Source of the DNA: Bacillota bacterium
GTDB taxonomy: Bacteria > Bacillota > Clostridia > Christensenellales > Pumilibacteraceae
Assembly: GCA_009787385.1 (NCBI GenBank)
Contig: WRGC01000002.1
Span: 1 to 64,000 of the forward strand
Direction of reading: 5' to 3'
DNA: 64,000 nt
Under the pieces are notes generated by a model. That model ran no database searches. It saw only the letters and a program-made list of their open reading frames with translations, and was not told the origin of the DNA. Numbering within the stretch: position 1 is the first letter of the stretch; every line of letters begins with the position of its first letter. Position numbers and translations under genes: made by a program. Shown one piece after another: positions 163-58,134 of the stretch.

Positions 163-350
163 AAGAAGTGTACAAATAAAGTATATTAAGATAGAAAAAA
201 GTAACACCTAGAATAAAATCAACCTTAAAGCGTTCGGGAGTTTGGGGGATTTTTCCCACTCCAATAGCTTTTTTGGCGTCAAAAAAGAATAATGCTACTT
301 TTGTTGATTGTTTGTATCTTATTATTAATATCCGTTACTTGTATATTCTC
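163..350 (+). mobile_element. Dispersed MITE-like repeat, copy 1
   Basis: Full copy of the window-wide family. The left end contains AGTGTACAAAT and the right end closes with GTATATTCTC. The 7-mer AAAAATT flanks it exactly on both sides (156-162 and 351-357), as expected of a target duplication. The interior has the conserved AATCAAC...AGCGTT block, a GC-rich hairpin (here with changed but still pairable bases), the hairpin around GGCGTC, and GTTGATT. It lies downstream of the SPFH-like gene ending at 476. Confidence 0.85.
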
Positions 351-363
351 AAAAATTAAATAC

Positions 364-395
364 CAAAAGCACTGCATATAAATACAATGCTTTTG
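364..395 (-). terminator. Intrinsic terminator of the SPFH-like operon
   Basis: Inverted repeat CAAAAGCACTG / CAATGCTTTTG (one G-U pair) with an 11-nt loop. It lies about 80 bases after the stop of the leftward gene ending at 476. The U-tract is weak. Confidence 0.55.
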
Positions 396-475
396 CTTTT
401 ATATAGTATATTCATGTATTTAAAATATATATCAATACAAAAAAGATACACAACTTTTAACACAAAATAATTGTA

Positions 476-1375
476 CTACAACTTGGTTTCCATAATACCT
501 ACAACACTATTGTTTCTGTATTGAGTCATATGTGATTCAATTTGCTCAACAACACTTTGCATACTAGAATCCAAAAATGCCTGTATTTTGTCTAGAGACT
601 TGTCTACCAACAAAGATACTCTATCTTCTAGCATAGTCACAATATCTTTAGAAAGTGTAGAAGATTGAGATGTTGCAATTTGTGGTGCAACTTGTTTGGC
701 TGTTATTTGATGGTTTGGTTGCCTTGTATAAGCAGTCTCTATAGGGACAGCATGCACGGCTAGACTACGCAGTGGCGACATAAATTGAAGTATCTTGAAT
801 TGCAATATCCTTATACCATACTCTTGCACCATAGTGCCAAATTTGTTAAGAAGCAACTTGTCTATCTCGGGTTTTTGCTCTTCTAGATTTTTGTATTCTA
901 TCTTCTCAGTATTGATTATTTGAAGCAAAAAACCATTGAAATGCTCTAATATCTTTGGAATAATATCTTGCTTCAAATCATATTTGCTGTACTTTGGTTT
1001 AAAGTCTATCAACTTTTCTACAAAGACCTTTGAATCATCTATACACAATTTTATTACACATCTTGCCCCCAATGCCACCATAGTATTGGTTGCAACATCT
1101 CTATATTCCAAAAAATCCTTGTTAATAAATTCGTCATCTACTATCAGTTGCTTGTTGACAAAATAATACTTATGCACAGCATTCTTTTCTCGTTTGTGCG
1201 TAGTACTCTGCTCTACAATACTTTCACTAAACTGATCATTCTTGACAAAAACTACATCAAACCCACCTATAGCTTGTATATTGATACTCTTTTTTTTGTT
1301 TTCTAAATCAGAACATGTGTACAATTTGACAAGGCTAACTGTCTTGTCACCATCAAACTTTAAGTTTATTGCCAT
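476..1375 (-). CDS. SPFH-like domain protein, single unit
   Basis: 299 residues, no signal peptide or membrane segment. I place it in the SPFH-like (YdjI / virion-core-like) group by pattern. It has an N-terminal beta-rich part with VHKYYFVNK near residue 70, then a stretch of charged and hydrophobic residues ending in YGIRILQFKI near 190, the spot where SPFH domains carry their closing FGI...F strand. The C-terminal 60 residues are amphipathic and probably coiled coil. It starts 23 bases after the stop of the larger paralogue at 1399-3387, so the two form an operon. An AAGGGG motif lies upstream at a long spacing. Role unknown; SPFH proteins usually scaffold membrane or stress assemblies. 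The family call is inference from motifs and was not checked by a profile search. Confidence 0.6.
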   Translation of the reverse strand: MAINLKFDGDKTVSLVKLYTCSDLENKKKSINIQAIGGFDVVFVKNDQFSESIVEQSTTHKREKNAVHKYYFVNKQLIVDDEFINKDFLEYRDVATNTMVALGARCVIKLCIDDSKVFVEKLIDFKPKYSKYDLKQDIIPKILEHFNGFLLQIINTEKIEYKNLEEQKPEIDKLLLNKFGTMVQEYGIRILQFKILQFMSPLRSLAVHAVPIETAYTRQPNHQITAKQVAPQIATSQSSTLSKDIVTMLEDRVSLLVDKSLDKIQAFLDSSMQSVVEQIESHMTQYRNNSVVGIMETKL

Positions 1376-1398
1376 AATATTTAGGATATTCCCCTTTC

Positions 1399-3545: not shown

Positions 3546-3727
3546 AAGGAGTATATAAATAGATTAGATTAAGAAAGAAAGGAACAGACTTAAATAAAAA
3601 CAACCTTAAAGCGTTTGGGGGGTTGATGGGATTCCCCAAGAGCTTTTTTGGAGTCAAAACACCTGTTTTGCTGATTGTTGGTATTTTGTTGTTTAATCTA
3701 CGCTAGTTGTACCTCTCCAATAGAGTA
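3546..3727 (+). mobile_element. Dispersed MITE-like repeat, copy 2
   Basis: 182 bp from AAGGAGTATAT to TTGTACCTCTC. It is flanked exactly by CAATAGA at 3539-3545 and 3728-3734 (7-bp target duplication). The second internal hairpin is shortened. It lies between tRNA-Val and the SPFH-like operon. Confidence 0.85.
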
Positions 3728-3807: not shown

Positions 3808-3883
3808 TGGTGGAAGTTGAGGGGCTCGAACCCCCGACCCTCTGCTTGTAAGACAGACGCTCTCCCAACTGAGCTAAACTTCC
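3808..3883 (-). tRNA. tRNA-Val (anticodon UAC)
   Basis: 76 nt including an encoded CCA. Acceptor stem GGAAGTT/AACTTCC, D-arm GCTC...GAGC, anticodon stem TCTGT/GCAGA around loop CTTACAA (anticodon TAC), and T-arm with loop TTCGAGC. It decodes GUN valine codons. It stands alone, transcribed leftward, with no tRNA partners nearby. Confidence 0.95.
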
Positions 3884-4762: not shown

Positions 4763-4840
4763 GGTAAAAACAAGTATAAATTTGTAGCAAAACAAAAACA
4801 CTACTGCATACAAAGGCAAAACAAAATTTGGTCATTGTAT

Positions 4841-4966
4841 CAACTTATCTCATCCAGACTATACTGTCGGTTGAGGAATTTCACCTCATCAAGCTTAAAA
4901 CTGTATCCAGTCAAGCGTCACGGACTATACCGTCGGTGGAGAATTTCGCTCCGCCCCTAAGTTGAT
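4841..4966 (-). promoter_or_regulatory. FMN riboswitch (RFN element)
   Basis: The reverse strand shows the conserved RFN pattern: an AGGGGCGGAG opening, GAAATTCTCCACC, GACGGTATAGTCCGTGACG, a variable arm, GATGAGGTGAAATTCCTC, and ACCGACAGTATAGTCTGGATG, closed by complementary ends near 4841 and 4966. It senses FMN and normally turns off flavin synthesis or uptake genes when FMN is plentiful. It is followed by the terminator at 4732-4762 and ribU. Confidence 0.95.
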
Positions 4967-5020
4967 TTTAGTATAACATAAATAGTAATCATTGTCAAAT
5001 ATTTTTAGGCTTAGCAATGC

Positions 5021-10246: not shown

Positions 10247-10436
10247 TAGGAGTGTACGAATTAGAGAGAATTAATATGAAAAAAGTAAAACTTAATTAAA
10301 ATCAACCTTAAAGAGTTCGAGTGGGGATTTCGCCCCCCATAGCTTTTTTGATTCTTTTTGGGCGTCAAAAAAGAATATAGCTACTTTTGTTGATTGTTTG
10401 TATCTTATTGTTAATAATAGCTATTTGTACAATATC
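10247..10436 (+). mobile_element. Dispersed MITE-like repeat, copy 4
   Basis: Left end TAGGAGTGTACGAAT; right end TTTGTACAATATC. Its last base coincides with the last base of the stop codon of the leftward gene at 10436-10810, so the insertion abuts that gene exactly. It lies inside the pheS-pheT interval. Confidence 0.8.
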
Positions 10437-19143: not shown

Positions 19144-20688
19144 TTAATCTAATTTTTTGCTAGTTCCCAAAATCATTTTAGTGCCAATATTATCCAAATA
19201 CTTGATACCAAATCTTGCATAACCAACACTTGTACTAGTGGAAAATTCAACAATAAACTGTTGACCTAGAACATCTATATCCAATATATCGCATTTGAAT
19301 TTAAAATTAGATTTTTTGTTAGATGAACTTAATATAGTATAATTGTCTAAATTAGATTTTTGATTCTTATCCAAGTTAAATTTTGAAGTTATTTTATTGC
19401 CCGCTAAATTGTAAAGGTCTATATTGGTTATATCTATATTCAACAAAATATCTTGCCCTATTTCAAATTTGTCTTGAGTATCAACACAAACCACAATCCT
19501 AGTGTTGTTTACCTTACAATACAACGCAACAACTCGTTCTAGTTGTCTAATATCCTTTACAGTAGCTTGAATCTCAACATATCCTACCCCCATAGACTTA
19601 TTCAATAATATGTTAGTAAGACCAAACACAATATCCAAATTTTCAAAATAATCAAAATTTACAACCCTTTGCCAAAAATCATCTTTCAAAAAAAAACTCA
19701 AATTGTCACATTTCAAATAGCCTTGTCTTATACAAGCATTGTGCAAAATATTTGAAAATGGTAAAGCAGACAAAGAATTGTGTGAATTTGAATCAAATAT
19801 GTGCATTTGCTCTACATCAAAATTGTTGGGCAAATTGTTGGTTTTGTATCTCAATCCCAACAATACTTGTTGTCCACACAAGTTTGGCAACCATCTAGAC
19901 ACATTGTCAAAAATGTCAATTGTTTTATCACCTGTAGATATTTGTGTATTACTTGAGATAGTAGCTTGTACAAAATCTATTTTTGGCAACGCTGTATATT
20001 GAGCAACAAATGCGTTGATTGGATTGACATACAATTGTTGTGGGCTACCATACTGTTGCAATTCACCATGTCGCATAACTGCAATTTTGTTTGCAAAACC
20101 TACACAATCATTATGATTGTCTGTAGCATAAACAAATAGCTTTTTGTATTTTTGTTGAATATCTACAACAAATTGCAATATTTCCAGTCTTTGCTCTTGT
20201 GACAATGTACAGTATGGATTATCTAGCAATACAATCTTTGGGTTGCGAACCAAAGCTCTTGCCAAAGATACCTTATGCCTTACAACAATATCTAATTTTT
20301 GAGTAGACATATATAAAAATTCAATCAAACCAAATTGTTTTGCAATATCATTTATTGCGTTATCAATTGTTTTCTTGTCTATTTTTCTCAATTTCAATCC
20401 AAAAGCTATACTCTTGTACACTGTATTTTGAAGTTTTGTATCATCAAAAATCATAGCTATGTCTCTTTCTTTTATTGGTATACAATCTTGTAGCGTTCCA
20501 TCTATCAATATCTCACCACTACTACAATGCTCAATACCTGCAATAAGTCTAAGCAAAGTAGTCTTGCCACTATTGTATCCCCCTGATATACAGACTATTT
20601 GATTGTCATCTAATCTTAAGTTGATATCTATCAAAGCTATTGCATTGTCATACAACTTGCTTATATTTTTGAGTTGCAGCTTGCACAT
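19144..20688 (-). CDS. Degenerate MalK/UgpC-like ABC ATPase
   Basis: 514 residues. The first 230 follow a sugar-importer ABC ATPase, with an acceptable Walker A (GGYNSGKTT, about 36), but the other catalytic motifs are eroded. The Q-loop reads MIFDDTK without glutamine. The LSGGQ signature is replaced by VVRHKVSLARAL. Walker B reads IVLLDNPY with Asn where the catalytic Glu should be. The switch region reads YATDNHND. The remaining 280 residues are two or more TOBE/OB-like beta segments, longer than in MalK. No permease or binding-protein gene is nearby. It may be a non-hydrolysing, nucleotide-binding regulator. It has its own leaderless-type promoter. Confidence 0.75.
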   Translation of the reverse strand: MCKLQLKNISKLYDNAIALIDINLRLDDNQIVCISGGYNSGKTTLLRLIAGIEHCSSGEILIDGTLQDCIPIKERDIAMIFDDTKLQNTVYKSIAFGLKLRKIDKKTIDNAINDIAKQFGLIEFLYMSTQKLDIVVRHKVSLARALVRNPKIVLLDNPYCTLSQEQRLEILQFVVDIQQKYKKLFVYATDNHNDCVGFANKIAVMRHGELQQYGSPQQLYVNPINAFVAQYTALPKIDFVQATISSNTQISTGDKTIDIFDNVSRWLPNLCGQQVLLGLRYKTNNLPNNFDVEQMHIFDSNSHNSLSALPFSNILHNACIRQGYLKCDNLSFFLKDDFWQRVVNFDYFENLDIVFGLTNILLNKSMGVGYVEIQATVKDIRQLERVVALYCKVNNTRIVVCVDTQDKFEIGQDILLNIDITNIDLYNLAGNKITSKFNLDKNQKSNLDNYTILSSSNKKSNFKFKCDILDIDVLGQQFIVEFSTSTSVGYARFGIKYLDNIGTKMILGTSKKLD

Positions 20689-20694
20689 GTTGAT

Positions 20695-20723
20695 ATTATA
20701 ACATTAATTGCACTTGTTTACAA
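20695..20723 (-). promoter_or_regulatory. Promoter of the ABC-like ATPase, leaderless arrangement
   Basis: Leftward TTGTAA (20718-20723), 17-bp spacer, TATAAT (20695-20700), then 6 bases to the ATG. Confidence 0.8.
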
Positions 20724-20735
20724 GAACATAAAACA

Positions 20736-20768
20736 ACCCACATGCGACAAAACAAACTGCATGTGGGT
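20736..20768 (-). terminator. Terminator after the RCK-protein gene
   Basis: Perfect 10-bp stem ACCCACATGC/GCATGTGGGT with a 13-nt loop and TGTTTT on the minus strand. It follows repeat copy 5 and serves the gene ending at 21009. Confidence 0.75.
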
Positions 20769-20799
20769 AGTTTCTTTGATAAATTTGTATTACAAAATA

Positions 20800-21000
20800 G
20801 AGAGTGTGCACCAAACGGTTATTAAAAACAAATACAAACAATCAACAAAACAAGCGTTATTCTTTTTTGACGCCCAAAAAGAACCAAAAAAGCTATTGGG
20901 GGGTTGCGAATCCCCCCAAACCCCCGAACGCTTTATGGTTGACTTTATTTTATATTGTTACTTCCTTTCATTCTTAATCTACTCTATTTGTACAATCCTA
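20800..21000 (-). mobile_element. Dispersed MITE-like repeat, copy 5
   Basis: About 200 bp from GAGAGTGTGCACC to TTTGTACAATCCTA. Both internal hairpins are perfect (GGGGGG.../...CCCCCC and the TTTTTTG/CAAAAA arm). It ends 8 bases from the stop of the RCK-protein gene. Confidence 0.85.
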
Positions 21001-21008
21001 ATAATTAA

Positions 21009-22763
21009 CTATATATTGTTGTACTTGATATATATCAATATATCATTACTTTTCAATATCCACCTATTCACCTTATCCAATCCATCACAAAAATATTTGT
21101 TTTTGCCATCTTTAACCAAACCTAGAGGCAATATAAGATGATTAGTGGATTGAAAAACTGAGTGTACAAACTGCACATAACTTTGCCACTCTATATCCCT
21201 GTCCATATCCAAAACCATATTAGCATTGTCAATACACAAATCAAACACTCCACCATTAGACAACAGTGTCTCATAAAACATATATCCACCAACTGTTAGC
21301 ATATTTTGCATAGCAAAAAAGCTGACTATTTTGCTAGAAACTATAATTGACTTTATTCCAAATTGCTCTATATTGCGTTGTTTGTTTGGGTCTTTGATTT
21401 GCACTATTATCTCACATGGAGGATTGTCACCATACATTTTTTGCAATGCAATAAGTGCCAAAAATACATTGTCATCATTTCTGTCACTAGATAGTATTGC
21501 CACTATAGTTGGAGTATCTGTCTCAATTGATTGCACAAACTCATCTAATTGATTTTCATCAAAAATTTGGTATTTTACGACGCCTTGCATATGATTTAAA
21601 GCATCAATCATATGTGGGGATTTGTCATTGTTGCCATATATATATACTATTCTCTGCTCAAGCTGATTGCTAGATTGTTGGATATTTTTGAGTTGTGAGA
21701 TATCTATACTTCGTTTTTGTGTCAAATTAGATGGATTGCTAGAAATAGCATACACAGTTTTTGAATCAATATATATAGGCAAACTGTCAGTATAATCTTT
21801 CAAATATTGCACAACTGTAGTTTCTAATTGACAATTATAAATGCTAAAGCCTACAAAAGACAACAAATCATACAATACTGACACATATTGCGGTCTAAAT
21901 ATAGACAATGCCATAAACTGCCCAATCTTGGCATTGCTACAATAAACCAATACTTGCTTATCTTTCAAAACTGGCAATGTTTGTATCACTCTTTGGGCAT
22001 TAACCATCACTTCATTTGTATTGCATTCTACTACTACAGGGCAATCATCTCTCAAGCTATCAGCTACTGTGATGAGCAAATTGACTATATCCATATTGGC
22101 AAAATCTTTGGATTGCCCAATGTCTTGCACAATAAGCACCGCCCTTGCTTTGGACAAACAAATATCTTGCAATTCTGCCAAATTGTTGGGATTGCCTTGA
22201 CGAACAATAAGATTGACCAACTTAAATGGATTGTCCAATGCAAGTTGTGCTTGATGTTGCATAATATTGGTCAACTCTTGCTTTTCTTTGCTAGACAAAA
22301 CTAATACTGTATTTTTTATTTTGTTATACGACAATTGTTGCAACAAATCTGGAAGTTTGTCATTGTAGTTGAGCACAACGAAATGTCCACTCAATTTGAG
22401 TTTGCCCTGAGCATTTGCTTTTTGAACTATATAGCGTTTGAGATGTGTAGTTGTAAGTGCAATAATAGTCCCACTAAATAGCACTAGCCCTACAATAAAC
22501 ACTATTACAGATAATACTCTTATACCAACAAATTTAGGCAACAATACCGCACTAGGGACTACCATCCATTGCAACACTTGTACCAATGTCAACCAAAAAT
22601 TGTAATATTCGGCACTATCTATTCGCATTGCTAGCAGTGTTGCAATCAAAAGTATGGCAAAATTGGCTATTATCAACTTGACAATAGTCATTACAAAAGG
22701 GTGCTTGTTGCCACCAACACTCACCCTACTTTGCAATAATTTGATTTGTGAAAAAATTTTCAT
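21009..22763 (-). CDS. CASTOR/POLLUX-like membrane protein with RCK domains
   Basis: 584 residues. Two or three membrane segments (about 27-45, 58-78, 82-106), then two RCK/TrkA-N-like cytoplasmic regions. The first opens with LSGHFVVLNYNDKLPDLLQQL-like sequence (split: SGHFVVLNYNDK near 125) and includes VRQGNPNNLAELQ, the NAD-fold pattern of the CASTOR/POLLUX ion-channel family. I see no potassium-type filter (GYG or similar) between the membrane segments, so channel function is uncertain. Two weak -10-like boxes precede the ATG and no Shine-Dalgarno is seen. Transcribed alone, ending at repeat copy 5. Confidence 0.75.
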   Translation of the reverse strand: MKIFSQIKLLQSRVSVGGNKHPFVMTIVKLIIANFAILLIATLLAMRIDSAEYYNFWLTLVQVLQWMVVPSAVLLPKFVGIRVLSVIVFIVGLVLFSGTIIALTTTHLKRYIVQKANAQGKLKLSGHFVVLNYNDKLPDLLQQLSYNKIKNTVLVLSSKEKQELTNIMQHQAQLALDNPFKLVNLIVRQGNPNNLAELQDICLSKARAVLIVQDIGQSKDFANMDIVNLLITVADSLRDDCPVVVECNTNEVMVNAQRVIQTLPVLKDKQVLVYCSNAKIGQFMALSIFRPQYVSVLYDLLSFVGFSIYNCQLETTVVQYLKDYTDSLPIYIDSKTVYAISSNPSNLTQKRSIDISQLKNIQQSSNQLEQRIVYIYGNNDKSPHMIDALNHMQGVVKYQIFDENQLDEFVQSIETDTPTIVAILSSDRNDDNVFLALIALQKMYGDNPPCEIIVQIKDPNKQRNIEQFGIKSIIVSSKIVSFFAMQNMLTVGGYMFYETLLSNGGVFDLCIDNANMVLDMDRDIEWQSYVQFVHSVFQSTNHLILPLGLVKDGKNKYFCDGLDKVNRWILKSNDILIYIKYNNI

Positions 22764-22878
22764 TAGAAAATAGAATAGTCAAAATTATTTTTTTAATTAC
22801 TCATACATTAATTGCTTTAAATAACTAGAAATATTTATCATATAAACTTTATATAAAAATAACTATAGCTAAACAACG

Positions 22879-23074
22879 AAAGACTTTTATAAAGTAGATT
22901 AAGAAGGAAAGGAAGTAACACTTAAATAAAATCAACCATAAAGCGTTCGGGGTTTGGGGGGATTCGCACCCCCCCAAATGCTTTTTTGGTTCTTTTTTGG
23001 CGTCAAAAAAGAATAACGCCTGTTTTGTTGATTGTTTATATATTATTGTTAGCAATCTATCGTTGTACACTCTC
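22879..23074 (+). mobile_element. Dispersed MITE-like repeat, copy 6
   Basis: Well conserved copy with a decayed left end and an intact right end (CGTTGTACACTCTC). Between the RCK-protein gene start and the recD2 terminator-like hairpin. Confidence 0.85.
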
Positions 23075-23080
23075 ACTTTT

Positions 23081-25519: not shown

Positions 25520-25720
25520 AAAAGTGTACAATAAGCAATTATTAACAATAAGATAAAAACTATAACAAGACCAGCATTATTCTTTTTTGACGCCAAAAAA
25601 GAACCAAAAAAGCTTTTGGGGGGTTGCGATCCCCCCAAACCCCCGAACGCTTTAAGGTTGTTTTTTATTTAAATGTATTACTTCTTTTCATCTTAATGCA
25701 CTCTTATTCGTACATGCCTA
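25520..25720 (-). mobile_element. Dispersed MITE-like repeat, copy 7
   Basis: Ends AAAAGTGTACA and CGTACATGCCTA, both internal hairpins intact. Directly 3' of the surface-protein gene, before its terminator. Confidence 0.85.
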
Positions 25721-28375: not shown

Positions 28376-28576
28376 TAGAAGTATACAAATAGAGACATTA
28401 AGATGTAAAGAAAGTAACAACTCAATAAAATCAACCTTAAAGCGTTCGGGGGTTTGGGGGGGGATTCGCAACCCCCCAAATGCTTTTTTGATTCTTTTTT
28501 GGCGTCAAAAAAGAATAACGCCTATTTTGTTGTTTGTTTGTATCTTATTGTTAATAAACTCTCCTTTTACAATCTC
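28376..28576 (+). mobile_element. Dispersed MITE-like repeat, copy 8
   Basis: About 200 bp, left end TAGAAGTATACAAATAG, right end TTTTACAATCTC, with an 8-G run in the first hairpin. Lies 30 bases after the DUF512 gene stop. Confidence 0.85.
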
Positions 28577-29904: not shown

Positions 29905-30104
29905 TAAGTATGTACAAATAGAGTACAGTAAGATAGAAAGAAGTAATCCTTAAATAATAAAAATCAACCTTAAAGCGTTCGGGGGTTTGGGGGGATTCGC
30001 AACCCCCCAAATACTTTTTTGGTTCTTTTTTGGCGTCAAAAAAGAATAACGCTGGTTTTGTTGATTGTTTGTATTTTATTGTTAGCTATCTCTCGTTATA
30101 CACT
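29905..30104 (+). mobile_element. Dispersed MITE-like repeat, copy 9
   Basis: About 200 bp, left end TAAGTATGTACAAATAG, right end CGTTATACACT. Fills the gap between the uvrA stop and the DUF512 gene promoter. Confidence 0.85.
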
Positions 30105-30109
30105 ATTAT

Positions 30110-33168: not shown

Positions 33169-33351
33169 GAGAGTATAAAAGAGTAAGTTATTAACAATAA
33201 AATATAAACTTTCAACAAAACCAACATTATTATTTTTTGACGCCCAAAAAGAACCCCAAAATATCTTGTGGGGTACGATACAAACGCTTTGCTGTTTTTA
33301 TTATAGGAGTGTTCTTCTTTCCATATTAATATACTAATTTGTACACTCGTA
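33169..33351 (-). mobile_element. Dispersed MITE-like repeat, copy 10
   Basis: Diverged copy, ends GAGAGTATAAAAG and TTTGTACACTCGTA. It lies between divergent genes (uvrA and the zinc-ribbon gene), so unlike most copies it is not next to a gene 3' end. The remaining intergenic sequence on either side shows nothing else. Confidence 0.8.
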
Positions 33352-33632: not shown

Positions 33633-33675
33633 AAAATAAATACCTTGCAATATTAGATTGCAAGGTATTTATTTT
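33633..33675 (+). terminator. Terminator of the mini zinc-ribbon gene
   Basis: Perfect 19-bp stem (core TACCTTGCAAT/ATTGCAAGGTA) with a 5-nt loop, A-rich on one side and T-rich on the other, so it can work in both directions. The repeat fragment begins at the very next base. Confidence 0.85.
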
Positions 33676-33732
33676 GAAAGCGTACCAGAACAGATATCAA
33701 CAATAAAATATAAACTTTCAACAAAACCAATT
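33676..33732 (-). mobile_element. Truncated MITE-like repeat, fragment
   Basis: Only one end of the family is present: GAAAGCGTACCAGA, then the TCAACAATAAAATATAAACT block up to AACAAAACCAAT. The central hairpins and other end are missing. Confidence 0.75.
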
Positions 33733-35459: not shown

Positions 35460-35525
35460 AATTTGTTTTGAAATATCGTGATTGATATAAAATTCCCCCT
35501 ATTAATATTCATACAATCAATACAA

Positions 35526-37433
35526 TTACCAACTCTCAATCAAATGTTCGCTATTAAGTTCTTGTATTCTCTTATATGCAGGTTCAAAGCCTTGCTTAGC
35601 CGCTTGCACATAGTACACACACGCCTTAATATAATTTTGTCCAACCATTTCACCCAAATAATAATAGTCACCTAATACTTTTTTAGCTTCAGGCAAATCT
35701 TGAGATACAGATTTTTGACACCACTTATATGCCAATTCCTTGTTTGCGTCTACTCCCTTACCCCAATAATAACAGTCCCAAAGTCTAATTTGAGAAAGTG
35801 CATATCCTGCGTTTGCCGCCTTAAAATACCAAGCAAATGCCAATTGCAAATTTTGTACTGTACCCTTGCCATGACTATAGCACTCTGCGAGTTCGTGTTG
35901 ATACTCTACATACTCCAATTCTGCAAGTTTTTTGCAAAATATAAATGCTTTAGACAAGTCTTTTTTTGTATATATTCCATCAGTAAGATATTTGTACAAC
36001 CGAATCATTGCGTTGGGATTGTTTGGAATTTGACTATACAAAGCTAGTGCATTTTTGTGTTCTTGTCTTGTACCTATACCAAAATCATAACACCTTGCCA
36101 AATCATATATGCTCCCTTCTACTCTAGCTTGATAAGATTTTAGATACAAATTAAAGACTTCTTCCAAATCATATTTGTCAGTAGTAGATTGCTCTAACAA
36201 CTGTGCCAAATTGTAATGTGCTGATGGCACACCACCAATTGATGCTAACCTATACCACTCAATACTTTTTTTTATATCAACTTCACAACAAATACCTTTT
36301 TGCAACAACACTCCCATCATAAACTCTGCAAACACAAAACCCGCTTGTGCATTGATTTCAAACCAATCAAAAGCTTGTTTCTCTCCAAGTTCTACTGCTG
36401 ATTTGTACCAGCTAAAAGCCTTATCCTTAGACAATGCTATACCCAATCCCAAATCATAGCACTTACCCAATTGCAACATAGCAGGAGCAAAACCAAGTTC
36501 TGCCGCCCTTTTGAAAAATTCGAAAGCTTTAGCACTGTCTTGCAATACACCATGTCCATGATTAAAACACACACCTAGCCCAAAAAAACCTTTTGCATTT
36601 TTGCACTTGGACGCTTCTTTGTACCACTTGACAGCTAATGCATAATTTTGATCTACTACCTTACCTTCATAATATATATCAGCCAACTTGGATTGTGCTA
36701 TTGCATTGCCATTTTCGGCTGATTTTTGATAAAGTTCGTAAGATTGAAATTCATTTTTTTCTACAAAATTGCCATTTCTATAACAATCAGCCAAAAACAA
36801 TTGCACAGGAGAATAGTTGGCATCTTGCAACAACAAAGCAGTATTGTATGCCTCTTGCAAATTTTGTTCTACACCTATACCCAATCTATAACATTCAAAA
36901 ATTTGTTGCAATGCAACAATAGACCCTGATGATTCTGCAATTTTGAACAAATTAAAAGCATGTACAAAATCTTGTTTGACATGTAAACCATGAAAATAAA
37001 ACCTACCCAAAGCTACATACGACTCAGTAACAGCATACTTAGAAGCATACTCATAGCATTCGTATGCTTTTGCAAGATTGGCAACCATACCCTCACCGTT
37101 TTCACAAAGTTCACCCAAATTGTAAGCCGCCCATGCATTGCCTTGTTGAAAACTTTGCTTAAAATATTGTATAGCTCTATCTATTCGTTTTTGTTGCCCA
37201 TTAGTACCAAAATAATAAACACAACCCAAATTATAAGCTGCCCAATTGTTGCCCTTTTCAGCTGCTTTTTGGTACAACTTAAAAGCTTTGTCATGATTTT
37301 CTTTTACACCATCTGCACCAAAATCAAAGCACACTGCCAAATCAAACATAGCTTGATAATCCTTGCTAGATTCTATAGTGGCAGTATTCCATTTGTCTAT
37401 ATCTCTTGGTGAACCATCATATTTGTTTTTCAT
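35526..37433 (-). CDS. Sel1-repeat protein
   Basis: 635 residues built almost entirely of about 16 Sel1-type (TPR-like) repeats of roughly 36 residues; typical units read AAYNLGCVYYFG, AQSKLADIYYEG, ALSQIRLWDCYYWG. No signal peptide or membrane segment, so probably cytoplasmic. Such solenoids bind partner proteins. GAGGGA lies 5 bases before the ATG. It is the gene upstream of nth with a 66-base gap. The specific partner is unknown. Confidence 0.9.
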   Translation of the reverse strand: MKNKYDGSPRDIDKWNTATIESSKDYQAMFDLAVCFDFGADGVKENHDKAFKLYQKAAEKGNNWAAYNLGCVYYFGTNGQQKRIDRAIQYFKQSFQQGNAWAAYNLGELCENGEGMVANLAKAYECYEYASKYAVTESYVALGRFYFHGLHVKQDFVHAFNLFKIAESSGSIVALQQIFECYRLGIGVEQNLQEAYNTALLLQDANYSPVQLFLADCYRNGNFVEKNEFQSYELYQKSAENGNAIAQSKLADIYYEGKVVDQNYALAVKWYKEASKCKNAKGFFGLGVCFNHGHGVLQDSAKAFEFFKRAAELGFAPAMLQLGKCYDLGLGIALSKDKAFSWYKSAVELGEKQAFDWFEINAQAGFVFAEFMMGVLLQKGICCEVDIKKSIEWYRLASIGGVPSAHYNLAQLLEQSTTDKYDLEEVFNLYLKSYQARVEGSIYDLARCYDFGIGTRQEHKNALALYSQIPNNPNAMIRLYKYLTDGIYTKKDLSKAFIFCKKLAELEYVEYQHELAECYSHGKGTVQNLQLAFAWYFKAANAGYALSQIRLWDCYYWGKGVDANKELAYKWCQKSVSQDLPEAKKVLGDYYYLGEMVGQNYIKACVYYVQAAKQGFEPAYKRIQELNSEHLIESW

Positions 37434-37520
37434 TAAATTCCCTCGTATGTAAATGTGATAGTTTTGTTGCTATAAAACTTAATATTGATTGACAATAATC
37501 ACATCAAAATAACACAAAAA

Positions 37521-37550
37521 AAACTGCAATACAACTAGTGTAGTGCAGTT
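37521..37550 (-). terminator. Terminator of the 57-residue membrane peptide gene
   Basis: Stem ACTGCA-TACA/TGTA-TGCAGT with one mismatch and a 5-nt loop; T-tracts on both strands. Lies 100 bases after the stop at 37651. Confidence 0.75.
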
Positions 37551-37650
37551 TTTGGAAAGTATGAAGCTTTGCCCGTTAGCATGTAGATATTGCTCTCACA
37601 ACAAATACGCAACAAGTATGCTCAAGTATATAAACAAATCATAAAGGTGA

Positions 37651-37824
37651 TTATTCTATCACTTCTTGAATTTTGTTCTTAGAATATTTGGATAATTGAC
37701 TTGCATTAGATTTTATTTTGCGTTTACAATTGTCTACCAAGTCTTGTGCAGGTTGAAAAGTATCTACAAGATAAGCTCCTACAACCATACCTATACCCAA
37801 TCCTAAAAGTGTACTATTTTTCAT
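37651..37824 (-). CDS. Small membrane peptide, 57 residues
   Basis: 57 residues starting MKNSTLLGLGIGMVVGAYLV: one N-terminal hydrophobic, Gly-rich segment (about 5-20) followed by a basic, helical tail (DNCKRKIKSN, KNKIQEVIE). The start has an excellent AAGGAG 6 bases upstream. The layout (glycine-rich membrane helix plus charged amphipathic tail) resembles small YtxH-like proteins, but I cannot assign it. It forms its own transcription unit with a terminator at 37521 and a possible promoter about 200 bases upstream. Confidence 0.8.
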   Translation of the reverse strand: MKNSTLLGLGIGMVVGAYLVDTFQPAQDLVDNCKRKIKSNASQLSKYSKNKIQEVIE

Positions 37825-38162
37825 ACTAAACTCCTTTATAGCAACTATTGTCCTGCTTCGTCATATACTCAAACCAGATACAAATCCAACTCAAATACAA
37901 GACTATACCATATGATGCTTAAAGATAGTTTGTACACTTTTAACTACAAATATACACTTTTTGTCGTATACCCCAATATTCCAACATTCCAAAATATACA
38001 CAACTACACTATTATTTATAATATGATATCACACTATATTGTGGTTGTCAAAGTCAATACCAAATTTTGGAATTGTCAATTTTCTAATTTACAGCATGTT
38101 TATTTACAATTATTAAGTGTTTTTTATTAAGCAATATTTGGTTCAAATTTAATTGATTAAAT
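37825..38162. other. Intergenic region with promoter, no gene seen
   Basis: 338 bases between the small membrane peptide gene and repeat copy 12. Only a leftward promoter (38023-38051) was found. The roughly 190 bases downstream of its predicted start form a long, AT-rich leader without a convincing ORF. Confidence 0.5.
38023..38051 (-). promoter_or_regulatory. Candidate promoter for the 57-residue peptide gene
   Basis: Leftward TTGACA (38046-38051), 17-bp spacer, TATCAT (38023-38028). Confidence 0.55.
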
Positions 38163-38337
38163 GAGAGTATACAACGAGATATTATTAACATAAAGTACAA
38201 ACTTTCAACAAAACAACATTATTCTTTTTTGACGCCAAAAAAAGCTCTTGGGGAATCCCCCCAAACGCTTAAAGGTGTTTTTATTAATTAGGTGTTACTT
38301 CCTTTCCATCTTAATCTACTATATTTGTACACTCCTA
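38163..38337 (-). mobile_element. Dispersed MITE-like repeat, copy 12
   Basis: 175 bp, ends GAGAGTATACAACG and TTTGTACACTCCTA, flanked exactly by ATTAAAT at 38156-38162 and 38338-38344 (7-bp target duplication). Lies after the secF terminator. Confidence 0.9.
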
Positions 38338-38367
38338 ATTAAATGAATAATTTTAATTACTATACAA

Positions 38368-38411
38368 AAAAATACTATCCTATCAAAATTAATTTGTAGG
38401 ATAGTATTTTT
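38368..38411 (-). terminator. secDF terminator
   Basis: 15-bp perfect stem AAAAATACTATCCTA/TAGGATAGTATTTTT, 14-nt loop, three bases after the secF stop; T-rich on the minus strand. Confidence 0.85.
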
Positions 38412-38414
38412 ATA

Positions 38415-39590
38415 TTATTCTATACTCTCTTGGGTTGTTAATGTTTGAGAAGTATTTTCTTCATTTTTGTTCTTAGTAGCCAATTTGGTTGCTTTTCGTT
38501 GGCGTCTAAGTTCGGACCTTGTCCCAAACCAATGACGAATATTGGTAGTCAAAGCACCTCTTTGTAGATAGTCTGGATGTTTGTTGACTACCTTAGCCCA
38601 TATCGTAGGTGTAATACATATTCCACTATACAAGCAAGAAACTAGCCCAATCAAGAGTGGCAACATAAATGTACGAACACCCGGCACAGCTATACCAAGC
38701 AAAAATACTACAATTGCGACAGAAATTATACCGATATTAACAAATCTAGTCAAATTAGAATTTGTACCTGTATTAGCAAAGTCTGTCCCCATATCGGCAC
38801 TAAAGCCATTATTTTCATGTCGCACTCTCTTGACATTTTCTCTAATTCTATCCAAAGAAATTATAGTATTATTGACACTATATATTGCTAAAGCCGCAAC
38901 CACAACCAAGAATGCTCCATTGAGTTGGATTCTAAATATTGCCATCAAAGCAAACACAATGAGCACATCATGTAGCATACTCAAAATGGTTGCCAATCCA
39001 CTTACAAAATCAAATCTCACAGCAACATAAATAGTAATAACCAACAATGCCACCAACAATGCCAACACAAATCTACCTATCAAATGTGGAGGCAAGCTAG
39101 CACTAGTTTTGAAGCCCTCACCTACACGCCCATCAAATTCACCATTAGGACTGACAATCTTATTGACTGCTTCTCTTATAGATGCATTGAGGTCCTGCAT
39201 GAACAACTCATAGTCTTCATCTGCATCAGCCTTGACACCCTTATAGCGTATCAAAAAACCTTCTCTAGTGCCACTTCCTTGTCTTTGCAAACTATCTACC
39301 TTGATACCCCGACCGTCATCACCAACTCTTGCAGATTCGGCAGCCTTAGTAATTTTTTCTCTCCAATCCTTTTCAGTATCATTGTTGAGTCTAACATCTC
39401 CTATCTCAACAGACATGCTATAACCACCAGCAATATCTATACCTACATTAAACATACTCCCTGATACAAATATTTGCACAATTCCAGCAATCAAGCCTAT
39501 AAAAATTATTGCAAAAGATATCCCAAAAAAGAGTTTGTATTTTTGGATAAAGTTGATATTTTTCATCATATTATTTTTAGACGACTCCAT
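38415..39590 (-). CDS. secF: Protein translocase subunit SecF
   Basis: 391 residues. Six membrane segments, first periplasmic-type domain with FNVGIDIAGGYSMSVEIG (the D-x-x-G-G region), then transmembrane segments including YSVNNTIISLDRIRENVKR, the conserved SecF motif between TM4 and TM5. Pulls secreted proteins through SecYEG using the proton gradient. The ATG at 39590 overlaps the 3' end of secD by 14 bases, with AAGGAG inside secD 12 bases upstream; MKNINF at 39566 is an alternative. The C-terminus carries an extra charged tail (LRRQRKATKLATKNKNEE). Confidence 0.95.
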   Translation of the reverse strand: MESSKNNMMKNINFIQKYKLFFGISFAIIFIGLIAGIVQIFVSGSMFNVGIDIAGGYSMSVEIGDVRLNNDTEKDWREKITKAAESARVGDDGRGIKVDSLQRQGSGTREGFLIRYKGVKADADEDYELFMQDLNASIREAVNKIVSPNGEFDGRVGEGFKTSASLPPHLIGRFVLALLVALLVITIYVAVRFDFVSGLATILSMLHDVLIVFALMAIFRIQLNGAFLVVVAALAIYSVNNTIISLDRIRENVKRVRHENNGFSADMGTDFANTGTNSNLTRFVNIGIISVAIVVFLLGIAVPGVRTFMLPLLIGLVSCLYSGICITPTIWAKVVNKHPDYLQRGALTTNIRHWFGTRSELRRQRKATKLATKNKNEENTSQTLTTQESIE

Positions 39591-41417: not shown

Positions 41418-43484
41418 TTAGAACGAAGCAATCAATACATTAGACCACTGACTCAATTTGTCTACATTATTCAAAGCCCTAACTCTAGCTTGCACCAATC
41501 CACTTACACTAGACGGGAATGTGAGACTTGTCTCAGTTTGAATATAATCCGTACCATTAATCATAAAGTGATATGCTGTTGCACCACTTACAGGCTGCCA
41601 CATAGCTGTCCACCCACCAAAACCTAGTGATGGTGTAGGCAAATTGTTTTCTGTAGGTGTTCCGTTGATAGTATCACTATCCATTTCTACATCTGGATCA
41701 AAGGTAATTGCATTTGACCATGAACCTGTAGAAGAACCACTTACAGCCCTAACCTTGACTGTATGCTTGCCCGATGACCAATCTGTGAAGTATTGAGTAT
41801 AGTTTGTTCCTGAAACAACTTGATTGTCATCTACTGATATATCATATCCTGTTGCTCCTGCTACTGGATTCCAGAATATTGCCCTAACTCTACCGCCCCC
41901 GCCTTCCAACGGCCAATCTTCTACCAATCCTATAAAAGGAGTAGCCAAATTGGAGTCTGATTGTCCAATACTCAAACCTATTGATTTAGAGAAGCTTGAA
42001 TACAAATTAGGGTGACCGCTCATATGTGCTCTTACTCCTATAGAATGAACGCCATTACCAAGTCCTGCAATACTGTACTCAGTAGTCTTTTGTTCGTTAA
42101 ACATCTTGCCATCTATACACACTTCATATCCTGTAGCTCCAGTGACAGCACCCCATGAAAGAGTAGTACCATTAATCACAGCAGTTGGTACTGCCAATCC
42201 TACAGTTGGTCTTACTACATTAGACCATTCTGATACTTCGTTACCATTTCTAGATCTTACAAAACATACCCTTACACCTGGTTCTTTTCCCAAATCCTTG
42301 CCTAAAAAGAATAATCCTGTTTGATTAGTAATAACTTCATTGATTTTTACATCATAACTAGTAGCACCATTGATAGCACCCCACTGTATTCTTTGGTGAA
42401 GATAAATTATACTTGGAGAAATTAGATTGCCAACTATACCAGGTTGTTCTCCACCACCTGTGTCGCCGCCACCTTGGTTTCCTCCACCTGTGTCGCCGCC
42501 GCCACCTTGATTTCCGCCACCTGTATCACCGCCGCCACCTTGGTTTCCTCCACCTGTGTCGCCACCACCTTGACCACTTCCCACTATCAAATCAATAGGG
42601 TCTGACCATTCACCTACACTAGGACCGTTGATAGCTCTTGTCTTGATAGTATAAGAAGCATCTGGCAAACTAGAAGTATCAAAAGATACTGCTGTCTTTT
42701 GTGTTATGTTGCCATTGATAGATACTTCGTATCTAGTAGCACCCTTAACCGGACTCCAAGAAACTTCTCTAGCATATTTTTTCAATACTGGAGCTCTCAA
42801 TGGATTGTGTTCTTGCAAGAAAAATTCTGGTCCTGACCAAAATGAGTCATTAAATACTTCTACATCACTAATTGCACGAACCTTGACTTGATGAATACCG
42901 TCATATAACTCGTTGAGATCAAATGTAGTTTCTTTGACTTGTGCTATTTCCTCACCATTGACACTTATACCATATCCTTCAGCATTTGGGATACTCTCCC
43001 ACTCCAATACATTATCTCCTCTCATTTTTGGTTGTGGAGCAGCAAGATTGAGAGTCACACCTTCATAAGTAGAATAGTCTACATCAACTGATTTTGACAT
43101 AAGTTCGCTAGAGATATCATCAGTATCTACAGCAACTACCGAAATTTTGTAATCACTTGGAAATAAGTCATTAACAATAAACTCATTACTGTAAGATGTC
43201 CCCAAAAAACTATGTTCATCGCCCAAATATACCCTATAAGACTTTGCATTGGGTACAATATCCCACATAACAGTATTTCCTACTACTCTTACATTTTGAG
43301 GAGCAGGCAATCCATTTTGGCTATGAAAATTATCTTCTTTATGTTTGTTGATTGATGACATAACTATTGCAACTATTATAGCTGTTACCAACAGTGCCGC
43401 ACCAATTATAAGCCACAACTTAAGCTTGCTATTGTTGTTAGTAGCAACATGAGTTGGACGGCTATTGCGTCTTGTACTTGGCAT
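41418..43484 (-). CDS. Anchored surface protein with fibronectin-III-like repeats
   Basis: 688 residues. A short basic tail, a membrane anchor (about 22-43: LWLIIGAALLVTAIIVAIV), then six or more fibronectin-III-like units of about 85 residues, each with a W-x-x-(I/V)-x-(N/G)A-x-x-Y core (WDIVPNAKSYRVY, WESIPNAEGYGISV, WGAVTGATGYEVCI). A Gly/Asp/Asn linker made of repeated GGGGDTGGGNQ separates the N- and C-terminal halves. No enzyme domain or sortase motif. AAGGAG lies 11 bases before the ATG. Likely an extracellular binding protein. Confidence 0.8.
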   Translation of the reverse strand: MPSTRRNSRPTHVATNNNSKLKLWLIIGAALLVTAIIVAIVMSSINKHKEDNFHSQNGLPAPQNVRVVGNTVMWDIVPNAKSYRVYLGDEHSFLGTSYSNEFIVNDLFPSDYKISVVAVDTDDISSELMSKSVDVDYSTYEGVTLNLAAPQPKMRGDNVLEWESIPNAEGYGISVNGEEIAQVKETTFDLNELYDGIHQVKVRAISDVEVFNDSFWSGPEFFLQEHNPLRAPVLKKYAREVSWSPVKGATRYEVSINGNITQKTAVSFDTSSLPDASYTIKTRAINGPSVGEWSDPIDLIVGSGQGGGDTGGGNQGGGGDTGGGNQGGGGDTGGGNQGGGDTGGGEQPGIVGNLISPSIIYLHQRIQWGAINGATSYDVKINEVITNQTGLFFLGKDLGKEPGVRVCFVRSRNGNEVSEWSNVVRPTVGLAVPTAVINGTTLSWGAVTGATGYEVCIDGKMFNEQKTTEYSIAGLGNGVHSIGVRAHMSGHPNLYSSFSKSIGLSIGQSDSNLATPFIGLVEDWPLEGGGGRVRAIFWNPVAGATGYDISVDDNQVVSGTNYTQYFTDWSSGKHTVKVRAVSGSSTGSWSNAITFDPDVEMDSDTINGTPTENNLPTPSLGFGGWTAMWQPVSGATAYHFMINGTDYIQTETSLTFPSSVSGLVQARVRALNNVDKLSQWSNVLIASF
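42451..42572 (-). repeat. In-frame minisatellite coding the Gly-rich linker
   Basis: Four imperfect copies of an approximately 33-bp unit (CCACCTGTGTCGCCGCC... on the plus strand), each coding GGGGDTGGGNQ. Locally GC-rich in an AT-rich genome; the number of units could vary between strains. Confidence 0.8.
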
Positions 43485-44872: not shown

Positions 44873-44892
44873 AAGGGAGTGTACAAATAGAC
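44873..44892 (+). mobile_element. Solo end of the MITE-like repeat
   Basis: AAGGGAGTGTACAAATAGA alone, without the rest of the element, directly after the Nudix gene stop. Possibly a deletion remnant. Confidence 0.55.
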
Positions 44893-44893
44893 A

Positions 44894-45424
44894 TTACATT
44901 TCACCTGTCTCTACGATATGCATTATGGACTGACTAGGTTTAATCAATTCTGTCTTAAAAAACTCAGGAACTAAATTGTATGATTTGATTTTGTCCAATG
45001 GTATCCATTTTAGAATATGATCACTTTCATGGTCATTTGCATCCTTATCATAAAAAGCTAACTTCAAATCTGTCCAACTAGATGGATTTTTGAGATAATA
45101 ATAAAATGAAATACCATGAAAATGCTTGCCACGATACTGCATAAAACTAAAATTTTCATAAACAAAACCCAATCTATCTATCTCAAACATTATACCAGTT
45201 TCTTCAAAAGCTTCTCTAACAACAGCTTGACTGCTAGTCTCTCCAAATCTAACTCTACCACCAACACTATAAAAATATCTCACACTCTTATTTTTGGCCA
45301 TCAATACACAACCATTATCAATTATAATAGCTCCCACCCTATAATTAAATCTACCACAATCAATATCAAATGTCATGTCTACATCGTTTTGTATTGGTGG
45401 TATATAAAAATTGTCATTTTTCAT
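44894..45424 (-). CDS. Nudix hydrolase
   Basis: 176 residues. Complete Nudix box: GGRVRFGE then REAFEETGI at the required spacing (about 55-78). Hydrolyses a nucleoside diphosphate linked to another moiety; the substrate cannot be read from sequence. The N-terminal 30 residues precede the fold. AAAGGA lies 8 bases before the ATG. Single gene, with the repeat remnant and DUF421 hairpin downstream. Confidence 0.9.
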   Translation of the reverse strand: MKNDNFYIPPIQNDVDMTFDIDCGRFNYRVGAIIIDNGCVLMAKNKSVRYFYSVGGRVRFGETSSQAVVREAFEETGIMFEIDRLGFVYENFSFMQYRGKHFHGISFYYYLKNPSSWTDLKLAFYDKDANDHESDHILKWIPLDKIKSYNLVPEFFKTELIKPSQSIMHIVETGEM

Positions 45425-52595: not shown

Positions 52596-52671
52596 GAAAG
52601 TGTACAACGATTGTTTTTATTTATATCTTACTTCATTCCCTTAATTAATCTACTACATTTGTGCACTCCTT
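52596..52671 (-). mobile_element. MITE-like repeat, internal-deletion form (76 bp)
   Basis: Keeps both ends (GAAAGTGTACAACGA and CATTTGTGCACTCCTT) and about 45 bp next to one end, but lacks the whole central hairpin region. It is flanked exactly by ATATTTT at 52589-52595 and 52672-52678. Confidence 0.8.
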
Positions 52672-56701: not shown

Positions 56702-56804
56702 TAACTACATCTCCATATTGATTAATTAAATTGCAAATTTATTAAACTTAGTTAACTACAAATACTAACTCTTGAAATATTGTTGGTTAATATAAAAAAC
56801 TAAG

Positions 56805-56957
56805 AAAGAGACAATGAGTGGTTATTAACAATAAACTACAAACAACAAAAAAAGAACCAAAAAATCTATTGTGAGGTTGCAAATCTCCAGAAAGCTTTAA
56901 GGTTGTTTTTTCTAAGTGTTTCTTTTTTCTGTTTAAATACTCTATTTGCACACCTTC
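56805..56957 (-). mobile_element. MITE-like repeat, degenerate copy inside the exporter operon
   Basis: Shortened, diverged copy (ACAATGAGTGG to TTTGCACACC), with the central hairpin arms partly lost. Ends 4 bases before the permease stop codon. Confidence 0.65.
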
Positions 56958-56960
56958 AAA

Positions 56961-57752
56961 CTAAATATAAAGTATAAAATTCTTTTTTAATAATCTAAAT
57001 ATAATACACCCTATTGCCAAACTAACTACTCCCATTGCTAAGCATAACAAATAATTATTGAGAGATGGTATAGTTTGAAACATGACCAAGCTTCTAAAAT
57101 TGTTGACAAAATAATACATAGGATTGAGTTTTACTATACTTTGAGCAAAGTCAGGAAAACTCTCTACGCTCATATAAACCCCACTAACAAAAGTCCACAA
57201 CTGCAAAAAGATACCATACAACTGTCCAATATCTCTAAAATATACATATATCGAAGACAACACTATACTAATTCCAGCACAAAACATAATTAGTGCAGGT
57301 ATATTGATAAGTATCAATACAAAATGCCATGTAATAGGAAACCCCGTAATCAACATCAAAAACAACAAAGCAATGGTTGAAAACAACATATTAGCTAATG
57401 CCGAAAAAGTATTGGCAAGTGGGAAGATTATTGTAGGAATATATACCCTATCTATCAAACCCCTAGCACCCAATACCGAACCAATCGCACCACTTGTAGC
57501 TTCTCTATTAAAGCCAAATACAACAATCCCACACATGATAAATACACGACTATCTATATCTCCATTGACATGAGAAAAAATCATAGTCATGACAAGCATT
57601 TCCATCAAAGGAAGCAACACAGTCCAAAAAACACCCAAAAAACTTCTTCTATACTTATTCTTTATATTTTTAACAACCAAAAGCCAAATCAAATAACTGT
57701 ATTTGTCAATTCTATGTCTAGATCTAAATATAAAAGCAGTTTCGCTAGTCAT
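56961..57752 (-). CDS. Polysaccharide ABC exporter permease (TagG/Wzm type)
   Basis: 263 residues, six membrane segments, ABC-2 fold. YLIWLLVVKNIKNKYRRSFLG at the N-terminus (amphipathic interface helix), GCIIF end. RKxxxRxxLG-like and NPMYYFVNNFR motifs fit the O-antigen/teichoic-acid exporter family. Works with the ATPase at 55967-56701 to move a lipid-linked glycan across the membrane. No firm Shine-Dalgarno; AGGA is 13 bases upstream. Confidence 0.92.
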   Translation of the reverse strand: MTSETAFIFRSRHRIDKYSYLIWLLVVKNIKNKYRRSFLGVFWTVLLPLMEMLVMTMIFSHVNGDIDSRVFIMCGIVVFGFNREATSGAIGSVLGARGLIDRVYIPTIIFPLANTFSALANMLFSTIALLFLMLITGFPITWHFVLILINIPALIMFCAGISIVLSSIYVYFRDIGQLYGIFLQLWTFVSGVYMSVESFPDFAQSIVKLNPMYYFVNNFRSLVMFQTIPSLNNYLLCLAMGVVSLAIGCIIFRLLKKNFILYI

Positions 57753-57947
57753 AATATCACAATCCTATAGTCTATTTCAATAGTATATAAAATAAATATA
57801 GACTTTTATCCATCAATAAATAATATTAGTACAATTGCAATTGTAATTGCACATGATAAACATTGTAACATTATAACAAATTAGATACGAAAAATCAACC
57901 CAATACAGTAAGATTGATTTAAGTAAATTTAAAATATTTATATATAT

Positions 57948-58134
57948 GAGAGTGCACAAGTACAAGTAGAAGATATTAACAATAAGATACAAACAATCAA
58001 CAAAAGAAATAGTATTCTTTTTTGATGCCAAAAAAGCTATTTTGGGGTTGCGAATTCAACCCCCGAACGCTTTATAGTTGATTTTATTTGATGTTAATTT
58101 TCTTCCCTTAATCTACTCTATTTGTAGATTCCTA
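57948..58134 (-). mobile_element. Dispersed MITE-like repeat, copy 16
   Basis: About 187 bp, GAGAGTGCACAAGT to TTTGTAGATTCCTA. Flanks TATATAT and TATATAA agree at six of seven positions. Lies between the exporter permease start and the ytaF region; the remaining intergenic bases show nothing else. Confidence 0.8.

What the first reader, a model, noticed from the sequence alone, without database searches (positions are those of the whole stretch)
163..58134. A family of about 16 MITE-like repeats with 7-bp target duplications and a cloverleaf fold
Elements of 175-200 bp occur at 163, 3546, 5021, 10247, 20800, 22879, 25520, 28376, 29905, 33169, 38163 and 57948, plus degenerate or partial copies at 33676, 44873, 52596 and 56805. 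They lie in both orientations. The ends are inverted (TAGGAGTGTAC / GAGAGTGTAC). Exact 7-bp repeats flank copies 1 (AAAAATT), 2 (CAATAGA), 12 (ATTAAAT) and the 52596 form (ATATTTT). Inside, AATCAAC pairs with GTTGATT and AGCGTT with AACGCT, enclosing two hairpins: GGGGGG/CCCCCC and a TTCTTTTTTG/CAAAAAAGAA arm. Copy 1 has changed arm bases that still pair. Most copies lie right after gene 3' ends. I know of no named family with this structure.
Basis: partly seen in the sequence, partly recalled or inferred. Interest (0 to 1): 0.8.

Follow-up and report, generated by a model that had tools for sequence, protein, structure and literature searches.

The report
Orphan MITE family with conserved palindrome
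This small bacterial genome carries roughly 240 copies of a short, gene-less jumping DNA element seen in none of the other genomes searched, whose best-preserved part is an inner 24-base palindrome rather than its ends; the enzyme that spread it was not found.

Summary
It behaves as a MITE: about 170-205 bp, non-coding, ends AGGAGTGTACAA...TTGTACACTCTC, AT-rich spacers, both orientations. Target duplications are 8 bp, not 7. Seven of ten orthologous spacers in a sister genome are shorter by 181-251 bp. No copy was found in 73 other genomes of its family, 296 and 397 others sampled from order and phylum, or viral, plasmid and phage collections; no transposase with matching ends was found. The cloverleaf exists in the consensus, but its helices show no covariation, so that part fails. 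What is conserved is sequence: the inner palindrome TTCTTTTTTGGCGTCAAAAAAGAA diverges roughly four times less than the element's average, and less than the terminal repeats. I read it as an orphan MITE burst, with the palindrome a cis-acting protein site (or triplex) needed for its spread. New member of a known kind, with one unusual feature.

The parts
164..350 (+). full element; 8-bp target duplication AAAAATTA at 156-163 and 351-358
3547..3717 (+). full element; duplication CAATAGAA / CAATAGAG (7 of 8); 3' end set by eye because mis-anchored it
10248..10436 (+). full element, 6 of 8 duplication
20800..20999 (-). full element, 5 of 8 duplication
22879..23074 (+). full element, 5' end degraded and uncertain; palindrome core at 22990-23013
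25520..25719 (-). full element, 5 of 8 duplication
28377..28576 (+). full element, no clear duplication
29906..30107 (+). full element; overlaps the N-terminal part of ORF 28607-30010(-), which may be only a TTG-start extension
33169..33350 (-). full element, G-rich hairpin largely lost, 5 of 8 duplication
38163..38336 (-). full element, one T6GG block deleted; duplication ATTTAATT / ATTTAATC (7 of 8)
57948..58133 (-). full element, one T6GG block deleted; duplication 7 of 8
56816..56957 (-). degenerate copy
33670..33729 (-). 3'-terminal fragment
44875..44894 (+). lone 5' end GGGAGTGTACAAATAGACAT
52596..52670 (.). 75-bp derivative without the core, perfect 8-bp duplication TATATTTT

Best explanation
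A family of non-autonomous DNA transposons (MITEs) that multiplied to about 240 copies in the lineage of this one species. Shown: inverted ends with a 10-bp shared part (GAGTGTACAA), 8-bp duplications of AT-rich target DNA, mostly intergenic placement in both orientations, insertion into spacers that are mostly shorter in a sister genome, no conserved ORF. Inferred: a DDE transposase supplied in trans bound the ends, cut them and joined them with an 8-bp stagger; its gene has been lost, has decayed, was of a type I did not search for, or lies in the missing ~10% of the assembly. Inferred: the inner 24-bp palindrome, the most conserved part among copies although its arms do not covary, is recognised as sequence, most simply by a dimeric DNA-binding host factor or by the transposase at an internal site, and was needed for copies to multiply. 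The G-rich hairpin followed by T6 may act as a terminator in some copies, as a by-product.
For: 120 copies in 766,578 bp (nhmmer 121). 8-bp register; 32 of 82 copies with 7-8 of 8 matches against about 0.9 shuffled. Sister spacers: of 10 with an element, 7 are 181-251 bp longer here and 1 is 99 longer (its element is a 112-bp fragment), 2 are shorter; 87 without an element differ by a median of -8 (p 0.0016). Tandem copies 41 same and 43 opposite to genes. Palindrome: column divergence median 1.0% at A/T and 6.3% at G/C columns, terminal repeats 5.2% and 22.1%; of 114 matches with up to 5 mismatches inside elements 53 are perfect, outside elements the best of 6 has 4 mismatches. Coreless 75-bp forms were found only as 2 singletons with different breakpoints in the sampled half, as expected if the core is needed for amplification.
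Against: No autonomous partner: no PF00872, PF01609, PF13610 or PF01797 match in the own genome, PF12762 in 0 of 74 genomes; around three rve matches no convincing ends. The coreless forms have perfect duplications, so they may have moved without the core, or be later deletions. Divergence does not rise as the duplication decays, so constraint after insertion cannot be separated from constraint before it. About a third of copies show no duplication (mixture fit 0.68 with one). Two of ten sister spacers go the wrong way.
Confidence: 0.85

Rival explanations
1. The elements are structured RNAs or mRNA 3'-end stabilisers whose cloverleaf fold is under selection.
For: One intact copy folds better than 199 of 200 shuffles (z -3.5); sliding the 3' partners lowers paired cells from 85.7% to 43-65%, so the fold is in the consensus; copies lie nearer upstream stop codons (59 to 24).
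Against: No excess of paired cells or double changes in the ends, P1, P2, P4 or an alternative AAAGC/GCTTT stem over shuffles in 99 copies, nor in 50 copies (86 of 500 shuffles reach the covariation score); the AACGCT arm is variable; orientation to genes is 41:43; a second copy folds no better than shuffles (z -0.81); no Rfam match at gathering scores.
Confidence: 0.08
2. The copies have been exapted as intrinsic terminators (G-rich hairpin plus T6).
For: 16 terminator-like sites in window 20000-39000 against 7.9 (sd 3.1) in shuffles; 6 of the 16 are the hairpins of 6 of the 7 full elements there.
Against: G-rich hairpin energies (median -13.8) lie in the range of neutral decay simulations (medians -14.7 to -10.5); no orientation bias.
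Confidence: 0.15
3. The conserved block is an A/T-rich potential intrastrand triplex (T-rich stem, A-rich stem, second A-rich stem CCAAAAAAGC), which would demand sequence rather than pairing conservation.
For: Arrangement on one strand TTCTTTTTTG-loop-CAAAAAAGAA-CC-AAAAAAGC, by eye; triplex motifs are known bacterial repeats (PMC4666352, abstract, outline and passages).
Against: The third block is not an exact mirror and is less conserved (A/T 7.7%, G/C 22% divergence); in that paper's passages G/C-rich motifs are the ones enriched over scrambled genomes. Not computed with its program.
Confidence: 0.1
4. A REP/REPIN-type repeat moved by a Y1 (RAYT) transposase.
For: Short palindrome in many intergenic copies.
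Confidence: 0.02

Closest known systems
Bacterial MITEs in general (review PMC10969869, sections 2, 3 and 4.1 read), such as QMITE2 of Coxiella (about 190 bp, mainly 3' UTRs) and Chunjie of Geobacter (178-235 bp)
   Same: Length, inverted ends, fading target duplications, AT-rich intergenic sites, truncated derivatives, tendency to lie 3' of genes.
   Different: Sequences were not compared directly; no partner IS found here; the inner palindrome is more conserved than the ends.
MITEAba12 of Acinetobacter (PMC6382973, abstract and passages)
   Same: AT-rich, non-coding, imperfect inverted ends, fixed-length duplications in 36 of 90 copies, similarity to IS confined to the ends.
   Different: 113 bp, 9-bp duplications, a resident IS with the same ends; copies highly conserved, here divergent.
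Correia/NEMIS (PMC2229807, section read)
   Same: MITE with an inner sequence motif (there an IHF site shown by gel shift) and forms with and without it.
   Different: Different host and motif; coreless forms here are two singletons, not an amplified subfamily.
CIR repeats of Caulobacter (PMC2229807)
   Same: A conserved motif at the tip of a hairpin in intergenic repeats.
   Different: CIR only partly resemble MITEs and carry GANTC; here the tip is GGCGTC inside a 24-bp palindrome.
bcr1-bcr3 of the Bacillus cereus group (PMC3446304, passages)
   Same: High-copy, MITE-like, in UTRs and spacers.
   Different: Sequences were not compared; other bcr families (bcr10, bcr18) are described there as having conserved folds, which is not matched by covariation here.

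Membership tests
MITE | under 500 bp, no coding capacity | tested here: met
   full window copies about 170-205 bp; the only ORF family shared by elements is three 88-96 aa ORFs made of element sequence
MITE | terminal inverted repeats of 4-30 bp | tested here: met
   GAGTGTACAA / TTGTACACTC
MITE | target site duplication of fixed length | tested here: met
   8 bp, 13 exact of 82 against 0.19
MITE | multicopy, AT-rich intergenic sites | tested here: met
   121 copies, 8 overlap an ORF of 100 aa or more, 7 at stretch edges not classed; duplications 228 A/T of 256 bases in the 32 best copies
MITE | related autonomous IS with the same ends | tested here: inconclusive
   none found; assembly about 90% complete, about half of it read base by base, several IS types not searched
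MITE | empty sites at base resolution | not testable with these tools
   only other genome held for the genus is at about 53% median protein identity; spacer lengths tested instead
structured RNA family | covarying helices | tested here: not met
structured RNA family | match to a curated family | tested here: not met
   gathering threshold only
REP/REPIN (RAYT) | Y1 transposase in the genome | tested here: not met
REP/REPIN (RAYT) | GTAG or CGTC tag at one end of the hairpin | tested here: not met
   GCGTC lies at the tip, not at an end (definition from abstract and passages of PMC3733652)
intrastrand triplex motif | three blocks able to form a triplex | tested here: inconclusive
   arranged so by eye, with mismatch, not computed; stability not testable here

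The most novel reading that the evidence does not exclude
The 24-bp palindrome is the recognition site of a host DNA-binding protein (nucleoid, segregation or regulatory). The MITE carried it into about 240 spacers, and the sites are now kept by selection on the host: a genome-wide network of binding sites spread by a transposon in one species.
Probability: 0.15. Interest if true: 0.75.

Novelty: new member of a known kind. Interest (0 to 1): 0.4.

Why it matters
A MITE that makes up about 3% of the sampled half of a 1.57-Mb genome, was not found in any sampled relative and has no visible partner enzyme shows how local such families can be and how their engines vanish. An inner site conserved more strongly than the ends is, to my knowledge, unusual for a MITE and gives a concrete, testable motif: pull down what binds it.

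Tried and rejected
Autonomous partner: pairs of ends (up to 2 mismatches each) 40-5000 bp apart with at least 7 of 8 duplication matches gave 30 known elements and 5 other pairs: three of 3.9-4.6 kb that span one to four known elements, and the two 75-bp derivatives. The one spanning a single element (L042:1861-6340) holds proteasome-type, MORN, M14 peptidase and phage-integrase-type ORFs, not a DDE transposase. Repeated ORFs: the C6/C14 assembly duplicate, ordinary paralogue pairs and element-derived ORFs; no repeated transposase recognised in the sampled half. rve matches: two look to me like IS481/IS3-type and IS30-type ORFs from the translations (no family search was run on them). Within 1.5 kb of the three only 2-mismatch end matches occur, plus one 1-mismatch right end near the C30 ORF (L162:2298) whose possible partner is a 2-mismatch left end without a duplication (flanks compared by eye). 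A 1-mismatch left end also lies near the one Transposase_mut fragment in G021 (L159); I took it as chance and did not pursue it.

Selection after insertion: a mixture fit to the duplications gives about 15% divergence per copy (12-20%), far above the palindrome, which suggested exaptation. But copies with perfect duplications are as divergent as those without, so much of the diversity predates insertion; I claim constraint, not exaptation.

Gene conversion as cause of the palindrome's uniformity: judged unlikely, because the 12 bases just downstream are variable (A/T 15%, G/C 34%).

Restriction-type site at the tip (GRCGYC): only mildly under-represented outside elements, 138 observed and 180 expected, both strands.

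Outside homologues of the core: blastn of the variant at L065 against plasmids, and gapped hairpin patterns in viral contigs, gave nothing. A recollection that similar T5GG...CCA5 hairpins occur in other phyla comes from no call.

Literature: searches; a search for three stretches of the element's letters found 0 papers. I did not search beyond these.

Full report
Observation. The window is the first 64 kb of contig C2 of a 1.57-Mb, 49-contig, about 90% complete assembly. A covariance model of the core built from 50 copies finds 120 matches at E up to 0.01 in 766,578 bases, 13 of them in the window; nhmmer finds 121 elements over 40 bits making 22,537 bases, 2.9%. Contig C14 duplicates part of C6 and was dropped from these counts; it was still present. 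Window and L037 overlap by 200 bases. Scaled to the assembly this is about 240 copies, an extrapolation: the stretches read were the ten longest contigs (nearly whole) and parts of two others, not a random sample.

Ends and target duplication. Of 130 hits over 60 bits, 99 had full ends and flanks, 89 could be anchored, 82 were distinct; the rest were dropped. Identity between left and right flank is raised over exactly eight positions (50-61 of 82, shuffled 29-34) and near background just inside and outside. Exact 8-mers: 13 of 82, shuffled mean 0.19. The element therefore begins two bases before GAGTGTACAA and ends two bases after TTGTACACTC, and the duplication is 8 bp. A mixture fit puts 68% of copies with a duplication.

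Insertion. In the only other genome held for the genus (G001; no match to the element in the whole genome; 669 kb of it read) ten adjacent orthologous gene pairs flank an element here. Seven of those spacers are 181-251 bp longer here, one is 99 bp longer (a 112-bp fragment), two are shorter (-67, -583); 87 spacers without an element differ by a median of -8 bp. A looser listing gave 11 pairs. Base-level empty sites cannot be read at 53% median protein identity.

Distribution. With the model: 1 of 74 genomes of the family, 1 of 297 drawn from the order, 1 of 398 drawn from the phylum, in each case only the own genome (stricter filters, at most 51, 12 and 9 candidates scored per genome). The exact palindrome: none in genome contigs or viral contigs; blastn of one copy: none in plasmids or phages. 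Records very near the own genome may be left out of those collections.

Structure. One intact copy folds well as RNA (z -3.5), a shorter one does not (z -0.81). In 99 aligned copies (strings identical to an earlier one, as from C14, dropped; none of the 99 lies on C14) paired cells equal the shuffled expectation: ends 793 of 922 (795 shuffled), P1 477 of 578 (477), P2 495 of 588 (494), P4 898 of 941 (897), alternative AAAGC/GCTTT stem 416 of 473 (417); double changes 8, 2, 10, 1 and 2 against 9.2, 1.9, 7.5, 0.3 and 2.2. The independent tool on 50 copies agrees (85.7% against 85.6%); there, slid partners pair less (43-65%), which shows that the fold is in the consensus. The G-rich hairpin decays within the range of neutral simulations. 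So the fold looks like a property of the founder, not of selection on pairing.

What is conserved. The palindrome TTCTTTTTTGGCGTCAAAAAAGAA has median column divergence 1.0% (A/T) and 6.3% (G/C); the terminal repeats 5.2% and 22.1%; all other A/T columns 6.2%, other G/C columns without the G-rich hairpin 23.2% (Mann-Whitney 2e-6 and 2e-4, columns not independent). A 24-column sliding score is 0.23 of the average there, the lowest in the element. By setting, the palindrome's divergence is 3.9% (37 copies with the genes), 2.7% (32 against), 2.6% (8 convergent), 6.8% (10 divergent), 6.0% (7 overlapping ORFs). Outside elements only six matches with 4-6 mismatches occur. AAAGCGTT is also conserved, its supposed partner is not. 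Sequence constraint without covariation points to recognition of sequence: a dimeric protein site, or a triplex. Since copies with perfect duplications are as diverse as the rest, the constraint acted at least on the multiplying lineages; whether it also acts through the host now is open.

Derivatives. Two 75-bp forms without the core have perfect 8-bp duplications and different breakpoints (window 52596-52670, L055:2873-2947); a 120-bp form at L063:7545-7664 lost the 3' half. None was seen amplified in the sampled half.

Placement. Of 121 elements, 84 lie in tandem, 12 in divergent and 10 in convergent spacers, 8 overlap an ORF, 7 are at stretch edges; all adjacent ORF pairs are 473, 51 and 50, so there is no preference for convergent spacers. 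ORFs are my own greedy set of 100 aa or more, not curated genes. In tandem spacers 41 follow and 43 oppose the genes; 59 are nearer the upstream stop, 24 nearer the next start. Avoidance of promoters could explain this without a 3'-end function.

Partner. Families searched: Transposase_mut 0 in own, 1 of 74 in family; IS1595 0 of 74; DDE_Tnp_1, IS240 and Y1 0 in own; rve 3 in own, without convincing ends. ISL3, IS66, ISAs1 and IS1 types, which I recall as also making duplications near 8 bp, were not searched. The element is an orphan as far as seen.

Verdict. A known kind of thing (MITE), a new family found in one species only, with an unusually conserved inner palindrome.

Noticed in passing
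G000 contigs C3, C4, C8 against the rest: Copy density ranges from 0 (C8, 54 kb read, with gyrase/topoisomerase IV-type genes) and 0.27 (C4) to 3.0 per 10 kb (C7) and rises with third-position GC of the contigs (Pearson 0.82, Spearman 0.65, 12 contigs). Cause unknown; perhaps position on the chromosome.
   Followed up: partly
L065:14570-14860: A core-like block with changed palindrome arms that still pair (TACTTTTTGGACGCCCAAAAAGTA) and no element ends seen by eye, followed about 230 bp on by a lone hairpin of the same type with 14-bp arms. It may be an older relative of the core.
   Followed up: partly
G000 stretches read, elements masked: Palindromic hexamers GTGCAC (24 against 167 expected), GGTACC (26 against 135), GGATCC (18 against 51) and GAATTC (82 against 214) are avoided, as under past or present restriction systems.
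   Followed up: no
G000:C14 and C6: C14 (39 kb) duplicates part of C6; nearly all paired ORFs are 100% identical. Probably an assembly artefact.
   Followed up: partly
window 4838-4967 and 3811-3883: FMN riboswitch and tRNA-Val, both on the minus strand.
   Followed up: no
window 42434-42569: Tandem coding repeat with 15- and 33-bp spacing in ORF 41418-43484(-), which looks glycine-rich (frame not checked).
   Followed up: no
window 1-47: Tandem CAAGGAG repeats at the contig end.
   Followed up: no
window 164-350, 38163-38336, 57948-58133: One of the two direct T6GG blocks is missing in these copies, leaving a shorter hairpin.
   Followed up: no
L042:1861-6340: Proteasome-type (HslV-like), MORN-repeat, M14 carboxypeptidase and phage-integrase-type ORFs side by side.
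   Followed up: no
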